Assembly: GCF_030852425.1 (NCBI RefSeq) | Contig: NZ_NSDM01000004.1 | Location: 186,001 to 250,000, forward strand | Direction: 5' to 3' | DNA: 64,000 nucleotides | Source: Saccharothrix longispora | GTDB taxonomy: Bacteria; Actinomycetota; Actinomycetes; Mycobacteriales; Pseudonocardiaceae | In this document: piece by piece, positions 37,255-40,095 of the stretch | Position numbering within the stretch: position 1 is the first letter of the stretch | Layout of the letters: every line of letters begins with the position of its first letter | Made by a program: the position numbers and the translations under genes | The notes under the pieces: generated by a model | Database searches by the model: none | What the model saw: only the letters and a program-made list of their open reading frames with translations | What the model was told of the DNA's origin: nothing

Positions 37255-37350
37255 GCTGCCATCCCGAGCGGCCGAGAGACCTGGCTCTACGACGCCGCAG
37301 CAACCACTCCTCCACAGGGGCAGGTGCTTCAGCCAGGACCGATGGAGGAT
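37255..37350 (+). promoter_or_regulatory. SAM riboswitch (S-box, SAM-I type) upstream of metNIQ
   Basis: Core S-box features appear in order: the P1 strand CCATC (37259-37263), GAGCGGCCGAGAGACCTGGC, then ACGACGCCGCAGCAACC, then AGGTGCTTCAGCCAGGA, and the closing P1 strand GATGG (37341-37345). The GAGAGAC-CTGGC and GCAGCAACC blocks form the kink-turn and SAM pocket. The gene downstream is a methionine transporter, as expected. The 90 bases before it (37169-37254) hold no gene. Confidence 0.9.
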
Positions 37351-37353
37351 CAC

Positions 37354-37431
37354 ATGCCCAGGATGCTGCTCACGCGAAGGCGGGTCGTCGACCACGGCCG
37401 CCGCACGGCCTCGGGCTGTCGCAGCCTCTAG
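37354..37431 (+). CDS. 25-residue leader peptide with a C-terminal Cys codon
   Basis: A short ORF that begins right after the riboswitch (ATG 37354) and ends in a stop at 37429-37431. The peptide is Arg-rich (MPRMLLTRRRVVDHGRR) and ends SGCRSL. Its ribosome site GGAGG (37344-37348) overlaps the last strand of riboswitch helix P1. It resembles the LTRRR..VD..R..CR leader peptides I recall upstream of sulfur genes in actinomycetes, where slow reading of Cys codons changes downstream expression. That link is from memory and should be treated as inference. Confidence 0.65.
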   Translation: MPRMLLTRRRVVDHGRRTASGCRSL

Positions 37432-37442
37432 GAGAGCCACGC

Positions 37443-37464
37443 GCCCGGTCACCGGGCCGCTTTT
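37443..37464 (+). terminator. Attenuator-like hairpin with T run before metN
   Basis: GCCCGG (37443-37448), loop TCA, CCGGGC at 37452-37457 by reading 37441-37460 as GCGCCCGGTCACCGGGCCGC, followed closely by TTTT (37461-37464). It lies 11 bases after the leader-peptide stop and about 100 bases before metN, the right place for a transcription attenuator. Confidence 0.7.
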
Positions 37465-37563
37465 CGATCCTCGCCGTCCCCTCCGGGACGCCTTCCTGAG
37501 CTGAGCCCGCCGGTTGCCCGCGCCACGAGCGCGGGCCGCCGCACGCCTTCGTGGAGTGAAACC

Positions 37564-38574
37564 GTGATCACTGTCGAGAACCTCACCAAGACCTTCCCCG
37601 GGAGTACCGGCCAGGTCCGCGCGCTGGACGGCGTGAACCTCGACGTCGCGGCCGGCACCGTCCTGGGCGTCGTCGGCCCGAGCGGCGCCGGCAAGTCCAC
37701 GCTGGCCCGCTGCGTCGCCCTGCTGGAGCGCCCGGACAGCGGCGCGATCCGCGTGGACGGCACCGACCTCGTCTCCCTCGACGGCACCGCCCTGCGCGCC
37801 GCCCGCCGGCGGATCGGCGTGGTCCCCCAGGGCGACTCCCTGCTGCGCCAGCGCACCGCCGCGGGCAACGTCGCGCTGCCGCTGGAAGCCGCGGGCGTCG
37901 CCGGGCCGCAGCGCCGCAGCCGCGTCGCCGAGCTGCTCGACCTGGTCGGCCTGACCGACAAGGCCGGCTCGTACCCCGACCAGCTGTCCGGCGGCCAGCG
38001 CCAGCGCGTCGCCGTGGCCCGCGCGCTCGCCGCGTCCCCGTCGGTGCTGCTGGCCGACGAGCCGACCTCGGCGCTCGACCCCGACACCACCGGTTCCGTG
38101 CTGACCGTGCTGGACCGGGCGCGCGCCGAGCTGGGCGTGACCGTGCTCGTCGTCACGCACGACATGGGCGTGGTCCGCAGGATCTGCGACGACGTCGCGG
38201 TGCTGGAGGGCGGCCGGGTCGTGGAGCACGGCAAGGTGCTCGACCTGGTGTCCGACGCGGCCAGCCGCACGGCCGCCTCGCTGCTGCCCGCCGTGGACCA
38301 GAACCCGGGCGCGGAGGCCGCGTTCGACCGGGTCGCGGACGTGGTGCTCGTCGGCTTCGCGGCCGTCGGCGCCCTGCTGCCCGAGGCGACCAGCCGGTTC
38401 GGCGTCGACCTGAACCTCCTGGGCGGCGGTCTGACCCGCCTGGGCGAGACCCCGGTCGCGCGGTTCCGCGTCGGCCTGAAGGGCGAGCGCGCCGACTCGG
38501 CGCTGGAGTGGATCTCCGAGGCCGGGGGCTCCGTGCGCAGGACCCTCGCGGGTCCGCAGGGAGTGGCTGCGTGA
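37564..38574 (+). CDS. metN: Methionine ABC transporter ATPase
   Basis: A 336-residue ATPase of the MetNIQ importer. Walker A GPSGAGKSTLARC, signature SGGQRQRVAVARAL, Walker B VLLADEPTSALDP and the switch His (VVTHDMGVVRRICDD) are intact. The C-terminal 90 residues are the NIL domain that binds methionine and inhibits transport when methionine is plentiful. GTG start with GGAG upstream. The stop overlaps metI by 4 nt. Control is expected from the SAM riboswitch and leader upstream. Confidence 0.95.
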   Translation: MITVENLTKTFPGSTGQVRALDGVNLDVAAGTVLGVVGPSGAGKSTLARCVALLERPDSGAIRVDGTDLVSLDGTALRAARRRIGVVPQGDSLLRQRTAAGNVALPLEAAGVAGPQRRSRVAELLDLVGLTDKAGSYPDQLSGGQRQRVAVARALAASPSVLLADEPTSALDPDTTGSVLTVLDRARAELGVTVLVVTHDMGVVRRICDDVAVLEGGRVVEHGKVLDLVSDAASRTAASLLPAVDQNPGAEAAFDRVADVVLVGFAAVGALLPEATSRFGVDLNLLGGGLTRLGETPVARFRVGLKGERADSALEWISEAGGSVRRTLAGPQGVAA

Positions 38575-39254
38575 GGTCTGCGACACCCTGGTCCACCGTG
38601 TTCGACCACCTGCTCGTCGCGACCGGCGAGACGTTGTACATGGTGGCCGTCTCCACCCTGGTCGCCACCCTCCTGGGTGTTCCCGTCGGCGTCTGGTTGC
38701 AGCTCACCGCCCCCGGTGGGCTGCGCCCCGGGCCTCTGCCGCACAAACTGCTCGGCTTCGTGGTGGACCTGGGGCGGGCGATGCCGTTCCTGGTCCTGCT
38801 CGTGCTGCTGACGTCGTTGACGCGGCTGGTCATCGGCCAGTCGATCGGACCGACGGCGGCCATCGTGCCGCTGTCGGTCGGCGCCATCCCGTTCGTCGCC
38901 CGGCTCGTGCAGAACGTCCTGGCCGAGGTGCACGTGGCGGTCGTCGAGGCCGCCGTCACCACCGGCGCCTCGACGTTCCGCGTCGTGCGCAGCGTCCTGC
39001 TCCGCGAGTCGCTGCCCGCCCTGGTCAACGCCATCGGCGTCACCGCGATCGCCCTGCTCGGGTACTCGGCCATGGCCGGCGTGCTCGGCGGCGGCGGTCT
39101 CGGCGACCTCGCCGTGCGACTCGGCTACCAGCGCTTCGACGACCGCGTCCTGTGGTCGACGGTCGCGGTCCTCGCGGTCGTCGCGACGCTCATCCAGTTC
39201 TCGTTCAACCGCGTGGCGCGCGGTGTCGACCGCCGCCGCACGGCCTCCGTCTGA
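38571..39254 (+). CDS. metI: Methionine ABC transporter permease
   Basis: A 227-residue permease with five membrane helices (ETLYMVAVSTLVATLLGVPV, GRAMPFLVLLVLLTSL, LPALVNAIGVTAIALLGYS). It carries the EAA-type loop that docks on MetN (VHVAVVEAAVTTGASTF) and the family ending GGLGDLAVRLGYQRFDD. The GTG start overlaps the metN stop (GTGA). Confidence 0.95.
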   Translation: MRSATPWSTVFDHLLVATGETLYMVAVSTLVATLLGVPVGVWLQLTAPGGLRPGPLPHKLLGFVVDLGRAMPFLVLLVLLTSLTRLVIGQSIGPTAAIVPLSVGAIPFVARLVQNVLAEVHVAVVEAAVTTGASTFRVVRSVLLRESLPALVNAIGVTAIALLGYSAMAGVLGGGGLGDLAVRLGYQRFDDRVLWSTVAVLAVVATLIQFSFNRVARGVDRRRTASV

Positions 39255-39285
39255 GGCCCCCTCTCCTCCACATCCAAGGAAAGCC

Positions 39286-40095
39286 ATGCGTATTCGTGCT
39301 GCCCTGCTCGCCGTGCTGCTGACCGCGGTGGGCTGCGGAAGCGGCGCCCCGACCGGTGCCGCCTCGGACCCGGACGCGGCGCTCAGGGTCGGTGTGAGCC
39401 CCGTCCCGCACGCCCAGGTGCTGCGGTACGTGGCGGACAACCTCGCCGCGTCCAAGGGCCTGAAGGTCGAGGTCGTCGAGTTCACCGACTACGTGCAGCC
39501 CAACACGGCGCTGGTCGACGGCTCACTGGACGCCAACTACTTCCAGACCGTCCCCTACCTCGACACCTTCACGTCCGAGAGCGGCGCGGCCCTGGAGTGG
39601 ATCGGCCCGGTGCACGTCGAGCCGCTGGGCGTGTACTCGAACAAGCACGAGTCGCTCGCCGACCTGCCCGAGGGCGGCCGCGTGGCCGTCGCCAACGACG
39701 CCACCAACGAGGCCCGCGGCCTCACGCTGCTCCAGGACAACGGCCTGATCAAGCTCAAGGCCGGCACCGAGAAGACCGCGACCGTCCGCGACATCGAGGA
39801 CAACCCGAAGGACCTGGAGTTCGTCGAGCTGGAGGCCGCGCAGCTGCCCCGGTCCCTGGAGGACACCGACGCGTCCGTGGTGAACGGCAACTACGCCATC
39901 GACGCCGGCCTCAAGCCCGCCGAGGACGCCCTGGCGCTGGAGGCGGCGGAGGGCAACCCGAACGCCAACGGCCTGGTCACCCGCGCCGAGCTGAAGGGCG
40001 ACAAGCGGATCGCCGACCTGCTCGAACTGCTCCAGTCGCAGCAGGTCGAGGACTACATCCGGACCGAGTTCGCCGGTTCGGTCCTGGCGGTCTGA
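39286..40095 (+). CDS. metQ: Methionine-binding lipoprotein
   Basis: A 269-residue NLPA-family lipoprotein that delivers methionine to MetNI. The signal ends in lipobox LTAVGC (RAALLAVLLTAVGCGSG), so it is anchored outside the membrane. The binding domain shows LRVGVSPVPHAQVLRYVAD, NYFQTVPYLDTF, VEPLGVYSNKHESLADLP and VVNGNYAIDAGL. AAGGAAA precedes the ATG. It closes the metNIQ operon. Confidence 0.95.
   Translation: MRIRAALLAVLLTAVGCGSGAPTGAASDPDAALRVGVSPVPHAQVLRYVADNLAASKGLKVEVVEFTDYVQPNTALVDGSLDANYFQTVPYLDTFTSESGAALEWIGPVHVEPLGVYSNKHESLADLPEGGRVAVANDATNEARGLTLLQDNGLIKLKAGTEKTATVRDIEDNPKDLEFVELEAAQLPRSLEDTDASVVNGNYAIDAGLKPAEDALALEAAEGNPNANGLVTRAELKGDKRIADLLELLQSQQVEDYIRTEFAGSVLAV

What the first reader, a model, noticed from the sequence alone, without database searches (positions are those of the whole stretch)
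37255..37564. Three-layer control of metNIQ: SAM riboswitch, Cys leader peptide, attenuator
A SAM-I aptamer, a 25-codon ORF ending in Gly-Cys-Arg-Ser-Leu and a GC hairpin with TTTT stand in series before metN. The aptamer would sense SAM, while reading of the Cys codon could sense cysteine. Together they would let the operon answer both methionine-cycle and sulfur supply, a combination I do not recall as described.
Basis: partly seen in the sequence, partly recalled or inferred. Interest (0 to 1): 0.75.

Follow-up and report, generated by a model that had tools for sequence, protein, structure and literature searches.

The report
SAM riboswitch gating a cysteine leader
In this soil actinomycete and many relatives, an RNA sensor for S-adenosylmethionine appears to control not the methionine-transporter gene itself but a tiny leader peptide of the cysteine-sensing kind placed before it, so that one messenger RNA could check two sulfur nutrients in sequence.

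Summary
The aptamer and the leader ORF are real; the "attenuator" is not a conserved part. A SAM-I aptamer (RF00162, 57.3 bits) lies at 37256-37348. Its P1 3' strand overlaps the Shine-Dalgarno of the 25-codon ORF (37354-37431), not that of metN (GTG 37564). All 81 distinct metN leaders compared (18 genus codes) keep aptamer, P1-overlapping Shine-Dalgarno and an ORF with the core L-x-x-RR-x-[VI]-D-x-x-[RL]-R-[TS]-x-x-[AG]-C. The core is conserved as peptide (78% of single-base codon differences synonymous; 30% at random) and is homologous to actinobacterial cysteine leader peptides (profile-profile E 5e-9). The other, higher-scoring SAM aptamer runs straight into a long ORF (thrC in the own genome) in 45 of 45 pieces. 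Most likely: low SAM opens P1, the leader is translated, and slow reading of its Cys codon keeps metNIQ on; the last step (Rho?) is inferred. The Cys nine codons after the Asp is TGT in 81 of 81 metN leaders and 40 of 41 of a wider set, although TGT is 12.5% of Cys codons in long ORFs; unexplained. Nine paper searches found no such SAM/cysteine-leader combination; the nearest relay is B12-riboswitch/uPPE2. No expression evidence exists here.

The parts
37256..37348 (+). SAM-I riboswitch aptamer (RF00162)
   Evidence: cmscan 57.3 bits, E 1.3e-10. Possible pseudoknot CCTGGC 37280-37285 with GCCAGG 37332-37337 (read); GCCAGG is present in 81 of 81 leaders, with CCTGGC (63), CCTGGA (10) or TCTGGC (8) in the loop.
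37259..37263 (+). P1 5' strand CCATC
   Evidence: Pairs with GATGG 37341-37345; these five pairs never vary in 26 distinct arm pairs, so they are conserved but give no covariation evidence.
37341..37348 (+). P1 3' strand overlapping the leader ORF Shine-Dalgarno GGAGG (37344-37348)
   Evidence: At least 2 bases of the Shine-Dalgarno fall on standard pairs of P1 in 81 of 81 leaders, 3-4 in 74 of 81; the start is preceded by GATGGAG, GATGGAGG or GATGGGAG in 81 of 81.
37354..37431 (+). leader ORF (uORF), 25 codons, MPRMLLTRRRVVDHGRRTASGCRSL
   Evidence: 81 of 81 distinct metN leaders; synonymous excess; homologous to cysteine leader peptides (weak NCBIfam hits of relatives).
37390..37392 (+). invariant Asp codon (GAC) of the leader peptide core
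   Evidence: Asp in 81 of 81.
37417..37419 (+). putative control codon TGT (Cys, nine codons after the Asp)
   Evidence: TGT in 81 of 81 metN leaders and 40 of 41 peptides of a wider set, against 195 of 1560 Cys codons in long ORFs of the 119 named loci.
37432..37563 (+). 132-nt stretch between leader stop and metN; as a class C-rich and G-poor just after the leader stop
   Evidence: Over 75 distinct leaders the first 50 nt average C-G +0.22, Y 0.66; C-G>=0.22 in 57% against 7% of 414 post-ORF controls. This is a class average, not a statement on the own stretch.
   Evidence: 1 of 81 leaders; 1 found, shuffles 0.2 sd 0.5.
37553..37556 (+). metN Shine-Dalgarno GGAG
   Evidence: Read; contexts listed.
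37564..38574 (+). metN, ATPase of the methionine transporter
   Evidence: Best NCBIfam hit TIGR02314 MetN, 279.3 bits, below its cut-off 499.7.
38508..39254 (+). metI, permease (start codon uncertain; the listed ORF overlaps metN)
   Evidence: NF008049 MetI 174.6 bits, below cut-off 212.
39223..40095 (+). metQ, substrate-binding lipoprotein (start codon uncertain)
   Evidence: NF008285 MetQ 192.8 bits, below cut-off 374.

Best explanation
A two-input, SAM-gated leader peptide. When SAM is plentiful it binds the aptamer, P1 closes and hides the Shine-Dalgarno of the leader ORF; the leader is not translated and metNIQ is off. When SAM is scarce P1 opens and ribosomes enter the leader. Shown by sequence: aptamer, overlap of P1 with the leader Shine-Dalgarno, conserved peptide, conserved TGT, no conserved terminator. 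Inferred: ligand binding, gating in the cell, Cys sensing, and the final step. I prefer Rho loading on the exposed C-rich stretch, in the manner of E. coli tnaC (recalled; suggested for mycobacterial cys leaders in PMC1262725), because it explains why both an untranslated and a finished leader would mean off.
For: SAM-I model match. In 81 of 81 distinct leaders an in-frame start of the leader ORF (47 GTG, 28 ATG, 6 TTG) follows GATGG(G)AG(G) of P1. The higher-scoring SAM aptamers of these genomes carry GAGGA(G) in the same place and a long ORF (415-430 codons) starts 7-13 nt on, in 45 of 45 pieces; in the own genome it is threonine synthase, the rest are alike by their first residues. In the named scan 25 of 120 placements run straight into an ORF of 75 codons or more by the same geometry. 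So P1 occlusion looks like the ordinary output, and before metN its object is the leader. Peptide: 14508 synonymous against 4038 non-synonymous single-base codon differences over pairs of 67 distinct cores, 78% against 30% expected; the pairs are not independent. Homology to cysteine leaders: profile-profile E 5.2e-9, probability 95.9; NF042933 (Ms5788A Cys-rich leader) matches 7 of 15 A1 members weakly, best E 0.0061. The own genome has two more such peptides, before a symporter and before DUF4395 plus a rhodanese; its only two RF00162 hits are elsewhere. C-rich, G-poor start of the intercistron: 57% of leaders against 7% of 414 controls.
Against: No expression, ribosome-footprint or ligand data. 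NCBIfam's cut-offs for cysteine leaders are not reached (16.2 against 45 bits) and the own peptide matches neither model. It has one Cys codon, not a run. P1's five core pairs never vary; beyond them pairing is kept in only 13 of 26 (position 6) and 9 of 26 (position 7) distinct arm pairs, so only the GG of the Shine-Dalgarno is firmly in P1. The ligand-free fold of the own leader does not free the Shine-Dalgarno: UGGAGGA pairs with UCCUCCA in P3; CCTCC is in P3 of 18 of 24 leaders of this genus but 0 of 57 others. The pair is not universal: in genera g3, g5 and g42 the peptides looked at have no aptamer and no metN, and 10 of 110 genomes gave no peptide hit. Link from leader to metN: no shared fold by eye in 6 RNAalifold groups; core/start-region pairing is a little better than shuffled (mean z -1.17, 39 of 72 below -1) but beats the mean of other stretches in only 7 of the 15 loci printed; predicted exposure of the metN Shine-Dalgarno is the same on average with the leader untranslated, stalled or finished (0.30, 0.31, 0.30 over 79 leaders). 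Other cysteine leaders show the C-rich feature less (28% of 25), so the Rho step is weak.
Confidence: 0.6

Rival explanations
1. The cysteine leader works by translational attenuation: the leader RNA pairs with the metN start region and a ribosome stalled at the Cys codon frees it, as citing papers describe for M. smegmatis cysteine leaders; the SAM aptamer gates the leader as above.
For: Homology to that leader kind; translation attenuation is how a later paper describes the M. smegmatis cysteine leaders (passage). No conserved terminator. Core/start-region pairing is slightly better than shuffled (mean z -1.17). In the own leader predicted exposure of the metN Shine-Dalgarno rises from 0.01 (untranslated) to 0.15 (stalled) and 0.27 (at stop).
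Against: Over 79 leaders the mean exposure does not change (0.30, 0.31, 0.30), 20 rising and 19 falling by more than 0.1 between untranslated and stalled; no shared fold. Fold predictions of GC-rich RNA are weak evidence.
Confidence: 0.26
2. Classical transcription attenuator with an intrinsic terminator.
For: Hairpin plus TTTT in the own sequence.
Against: 1 of 81 leaders has it; 1 site against 0.2 (sd 0.5) in shuffles.
Confidence: 0.05
3. Termination-reinitiation relay: ribosomes that finish the leader re-start at metN, as uPPE2 to PPE2 in M. tuberculosis; the leader is only a ribosome carrier.
For: A riboswitch-gated uORF that is needed for the next gene is shown there.
Against: Stop-to-start distance is 132 nt here and 75-147 nt in the 70 of 81 leaders where that call found the start, not an overlap; metN has its own Shine-Dalgarno; it would not explain the conserved peptide and TGT.
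Confidence: 0.08
4. The leader ORF is a nascent-chain arrest peptide whose conserved Arg-rich body, not tRNA-Cys charging, senses a metabolite or antibiotic.
For: The body (RR-x-[VI]-D-x-x-[RL]-R-[TS]) is conserved beyond what a Cys counter needs; one Cys position only is invariant.
Against: Members of the wider family carry more Cys, up to runs, and one stands before a rhodanese gene in the own genome; the synonymous constraint on TGT points to decoding.
Confidence: 0.1

Closest known systems
B12 (ppe2) riboswitch and uPPE2 of Mycobacterium tuberculosis (PMC11260477)
   Same: A riboswitch masks the Shine-Dalgarno of a uORF, and the downstream gene depends on translation of that uORF (abstract, outline and two sections read).
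   Different: Ligand B12 not SAM; the uORF stop overlaps the next start and works mainly by termination-reinitiation; no amino-acid sensing by uPPE2 is mentioned in what I read. Here 132 nt separate the two and the uORF is of the cysteine-leader kind.
Cysteine-responsive leader peptides of mycobacteria (Ms5788A; Canestrari et al. 2020) and NCBIfam NF042933/NF042934
   Same: Homologous core with Cys nine codons after the Asp.
   Different: Those are called leaderless and polycysteine-encoding in the title; here the peptide has a Shine-Dalgarno inside an aptamer, and the own one has a single Cys. Paper not held; known through citing passages, the earlier proposal and recall.
metL leader peptide before metNIQ of Streptomyces lividans (PMC8079986)
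   Same: Leader peptide with Cys and Met codons before the same operon (passages).
   Different: Leaderless; the SAM riboswitch listed there is before threonine genes; the peptide MSTTSDRTPATEATTTPGARCMCRRMCAF lacks the core.
Cysteine leader ORFs predicted before actinobacterial cys operons (PMC1262725)
   Same: Leader ORFs with Cys codons near the stop, no conserved terminator, pyrimidine-rich motifs and Rho suggested (first of three parts read).
   Different: No riboswitch is mentioned with them in the part read.
SAM-I riboswitch before thrC in the own genome
   Same: RF00162 with the Shine-Dalgarno in P1.
   Different: Stands directly before thrC, no leader ORF; longer aptamer (115 against 93 nt).

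Membership tests
SAM-I riboswitch (RF00162) | Match to the covariance model above gathering score | tested here: met
   57.3 against 44.4 bits.
SAM-I riboswitch (RF00162) | SAM binding | not testable with these tools
   Needs in-line probing or ITC.
SAM-I riboswitch (RF00162) | Expression platform linked to P1 | tested here: inconclusive
   Overlap of P1 and leader Shine-Dalgarno in 81 of 81, but pairing beyond the five core pairs is kept in half or fewer of the arm types, and the ligand-free fold does not show switching.
SAM-I/IV variant (RF01725) | Model match | tested here: not met
   No match at E<=10 in the own genome.
NCBIfam NF042933 / NF042934 cysteine leader peptides | Curated score cut-off | tested here: not met
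   Best 16.2 bits against 45 for a relative; NF042934 in 1 of 15 members at E 1.7; the own peptide matches neither.
Actinobacterial cysteine leader peptides (homology, wider sense) | Shared sequence profile | tested here: met
   hhalign E 5.2e-9, probability 95.9; both alignments hold 15 peptides that I chose and trimmed.
Actinobacterial cysteine leader peptides (homology, wider sense) | Cys codon near the stop, before a sulfur gene | tested here: met
   TGT has 1-9 codons between it and the stop; metN follows in 50 of 50 aptamer-peptide pieces of a second set.
Actinobacterial cysteine leader peptides (homology, wider sense) | Expression responds to Cys | not testable with these tools
   Needs reporters.
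Intrinsic-terminator attenuator | Conserved hairpin followed by a T-run | tested here: not met
   1 of 81 leaders.
Riboswitch-uORF relay of the ppe2 kind | uORF stop overlapping or next to the downstream start | tested here: not met
   75-147 nt apart in 70 leaders measured.
Rho-dependent attenuator (tnaC kind) | C-rich, G-poor stretch after the leader | tested here: inconclusive
   Composition fits; Rho action untested.

The most novel reading that the evidence does not exclude
A natural RNA logic device in which one metabolite sensor (SAM aptamer) has as its output the translation of a second sensor (a cysteine leader peptide), kept before metN in most genera of a family (41 of 46 sampled) and paired again before sulfone-monooxygenase-type genes in other actinomycetes; and the wider cysteine-leader family reads Cys through one nearly invariant, disfavoured UGU codon at a fixed distance from an invariant Asp, which implies a decoding-level sensor not yet described.
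Probability: 0.5. Interest if true: 0.77.

Novelty: new variant of a known kind. Interest (0 to 1): 0.62.

Why it matters
Tandem riboswitches and leader-peptide attenuators are each well known; a riboswitch whose object is an amino-acid-sensing leader peptide would be a serial two-input gate made of RNA and ribosome alone. It makes biological sense: methionine uptake feeds both SAM and, by reverse transsulfuration (established pathway, recalled; not checked in this genome), cysteine. The UGU codon gives a sharp, testable handle on how slow decoding is sensed in high-GC bacteria, in a leader family with a hit in 68 of 79 class genomes at E<=0.01, 57 of 79 above the cut-off.

Tried and rejected
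Intrinsic attenuator: rejected as a conserved part. SAM-I/IV: no match. Leader-to-metN base pairing as the switch: RNAalifold by group and mean Shine-Dalgarno exposure in three ribosome states gave no signal; duplex energies gave a weak one against shuffles, none clear against other stretches. A wider RNA motif around the TGT: neighbouring codons vary, so the constraint looks specific to the codon, but I found no cause. Pfam has no match for the 15 peptides. A regex for the aptamer failed for wrong spacing and was corrected; the core regex missed the LTQRR/LTERR leaders and was widened after I had seen them, so 81 of 81 was not counted blind. Of 95 pieces 13 were dropped as duplicates (same from aptamer to 100 nt beyond) and L094 because its leader lay outside the piece; fetched again as L368 it has both aptamer and leader ORF. 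In one search two opposite-strand echoes (L293, L295) are not peptides and are not counted.

Full report
What is there. Rfam's SAM-I model matches 37256-37348 + with 57.3 bits (gathering 44.4). Five bases further on, ATG 37354 opens a 25-codon ORF that ends at TAG 37431. Its Shine-Dalgarno GGAGG (37344-37348) is part of GATGGAGG, the 3' strand of the aptamer's closing helix P1. metN begins 132 nt after the leader stop with its own GGAG. Upstream is rsmA (equivalog hit above cut-off). metN, metI and metQ are named from best NCBIfam hits that stay below the curated cut-offs.

Relatives. The window lies in an 8.28-Mb genome. RF00162 is found in 200 of 200 sampled genomes of the family and in 25 of 25 of the genus, there twice each. 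In the own genome the second copy stands before thrC (threonine synthase TIGR00260 above its cut-off). In 45 of 45 pieces around high-scoring copies GAGGA(G) sits in the same P1 place and a long ORF starts 7-13 nt after the aptamer; only the own product was tested.

metN leaders. From the own genome, the genus and family genomes with a close MetI (115 of 200 genomes at E<=1e-25) I took 95 pieces. After 13 duplicates and one piece that ended short, 81 distinct leaders remained, from 18 genus codes by my count; all 81 have the aptamer, the P1-overlapping Shine-Dalgarno and an ORF with the same C-terminal core. Leader length is 23-55 codons by the Shine-Dalgarno-preceded start, the N-terminal part varying; the core does not. 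A second set of 61 pieces, chosen by the peptide model A1, has 50 with aptamer plus peptide, all 50 with metN behind (43 by motif, 7 by tblastn), 9 with a peptide but no aptamer, and 2 that the pattern missed; on reading, L368 has aptamer and peptide, L355 a peptide without aptamer. The sets overlap in genomes and are not to be added. Together they show the arrangement in 41 of 46 genus codes by my count. Against universality: in g3, g5 and g42 the peptides looked at have neither aptamer nor metN, and for g12 and g37 no peptide was found. A1 itself hits 100 of 110 family genomes, 44 of 46 genera, at E<=1e-4.

Peptide, not only RNA. Over pairs of 67 distinct 18-codon cores, differences per site are 0.16, 0.12 and 0.51 at codon positions 1, 2 and 3; single-base codon differences are 14508 synonymous to 4038 not (78%; random change 30%). 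The pairs share ancestry, so this is a direction, not a p-value.

Kin of the peptide. Profile comparison with 15 peptides of the NF042934 kind gives E 5.2e-9. NF042933, Ms5788A Cys-rich leader peptide, matches 7 of 15 members of A1, best E 0.0061, well below its cut-off. So I call it homologous to cysteine leader peptides, not a member of an NCBIfam family. The own genome has two further copies: MNELLTRRRHIDYGRRTTASCRG before a sodium:dicarboxylate-family symporter, and MTTLLTKRLAVDLCRVRSSLCRATS before a DUF4395 protein and a rhodanese; neither is at one of the genome's two RF00162 hits.

The TGT codon. The Cys nine codons after the Asp is TGT in 81 of 81 metN leaders, 79 of 79 pattern matches of the named scan, the 50 aptamer-linked leaders of the second set and 40 of 41 pattern matches in 51 pieces, 14 of these 41 aptamer-linked and 27 not (checked; the exception, L339, is a marginal hit of 27.9 bits, cut-off 27). 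It is also TGT in the own rhodanese leader L340, which that pattern missed. The sets overlap in part. Other Cys codons in the 41 peptides are 57 TGC and 19 TGT (Fisher p 1.7e-15). TGT is 195 of 1560 Cys codons in long ORFs of the named loci and 12 of 114 in the window. Neighbouring codons vary. A slow, wobble-read codon that makes the sensor sensitive is the simplest idea; it is not tested.

Spread. 79 have the core leader ORF by pattern and L273 has it on reading; 25 run straight into an ORF of 75 codons or more; 4 were classed as other short ORFs (L273 among them); 12 could not be assigned. Of 81 titled placements 50 have the core; by genus name (family membership recalled, not looked up) these are Pseudonocardiaceae in GTDB's sense except an Actinomycetales MAG (L162) and Ornithinimicrobium sediminis (L203). 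These two, with L268 and L276, have RR-x-[VI]-DLMRRAV-[ST]-AC with TGT before a flavin reductase (Pfam hit for L276; the others by reading) and, in L162 and L276, a monooxygenase; for L276 the best hit is dimethylsulfone monooxygenase SfnG, on a partial sequence. In the order, an exact pattern is found in 23 of 29 family genomes and 2 of 171 others; both of the latter carry aptamer, DLMRR leader with TGT and a flavin-reductase-like frame, one also an SfnG-like frame, by reading. Two further short ORFs, without the core but with several Cys codons, follow SAM aptamers in Streptomyces sp. NP160 (before metQ-like and metN-like frames) and Actinomyces haliotis (before a metE-like frame) (gene names by reading).

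The last step. Hairpins followed by TTTT: 1 of 81. C exceeds G in 77 of 77 distinct intercistrons, and C-G>=0.22 holds in the first 50 nt of 57% of 75 leaders, against 3% of 20,000 random windows, 7% of 414 stretches after other ORFs and 28% of 25 other cysteine leaders. The control codon lies 1-9 codons before the stop, so a stalled and a finishing ribosome cover nearly the same RNA; duration rather than position would be the signal. This favours shielding of a Rho site over a choice between hairpins, but it is inference. Tests for leader-metN pairing were negative on average, with a weak signal against shuffles; in the own leader taken alone, predicted exposure of the metN Shine-Dalgarno does rise with a ribosome on the leader (0.01 to 0.15 and 0.27).

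P1 gating. The five core pairs CCAUC/GAUGG are invariant; outer pairing is kept in half or fewer of the 26 arm types at positions 6 and 7. Without ligand, the predicted fold of the own leader buries the Shine-Dalgarno against P3; a CCTCC in that place is present in 18 of 24 leaders of this genus and 0 of 57 others. Gating thus rests on geometry and on the ordinary behaviour of SAM-I riboswitches, not on a switching calculation.

Literature. Nine searches of the held open-access library listed no paper that I recognised as describing a SAM riboswitch gating a cysteine leader; most subscription papers are not held, among them the key mycobacterial paper. Nearest: uPPE2 (abstract, two sections); S. 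lividans metL (passages); actinobacterial leaders (first of three parts); mycobacterial uORFs (passages); a Rhodobacterales cysS uORF motif in which UGC dominates (passages), which contrasts with the UGU rule here.

Judgement. The aptamer and the leader ORF are as good as certain, gating of the leader is likely, Cys sensing is probable by homology, and the final mechanism is open.

Noticed in passing
37417-37419 and homologous codons in L142, L309-L317, L340 and others: Across the cysteine-leader peptides examined the Cys nine codons after the invariant Asp is almost always TGT (40 of 41) although TGC is the usual codon (195 TGT of 1560). No explanation found.
   Followed up: partly
L142 1489-1572 (own genome C3): A second leader peptide of this kind (MNELLTRRRHIDYGRRTTASCRG) without riboswitch, before a sodium:dicarboxylate-family symporter; like symporters follow in L355, L356, L358, L371 and L372. 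The link suggests that the symporter may carry cystine or another sulfur compound.
   Followed up: partly
L162, L203, L268, L276, L373, L374: SAM-I aptamer plus a leader ORF with a Met codon in the core (DLMRR) and TGT Cys, before flavin-reductase-like and, where seen, SfnG-like genes: same device, other operon, with Met and Cys codons together.
   Followed up: partly
L167 and L177: Cys-containing short ORFs without the core directly after SAM-I aptamers (before metQ-like and metE-like frames by reading), possibly independent inventions of the same combination.
   Followed up: no
metN leaders, e.g. 37564-37580: The first codons of metN (GTG ATC AC[TA] GTC GA) are nearly invariant in DNA, with a seldom used Thr codon ACT/ACA in most; this may be a codon-level constraint at the start.
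   Followed up: no
L123, L126, L127, L132: These leaders carry an extra Cys codon (TGC) two before the TGT; others have a Cys two codons after the Asp (DQC), so Cys number varies while the TGT stays.
   Followed up: no
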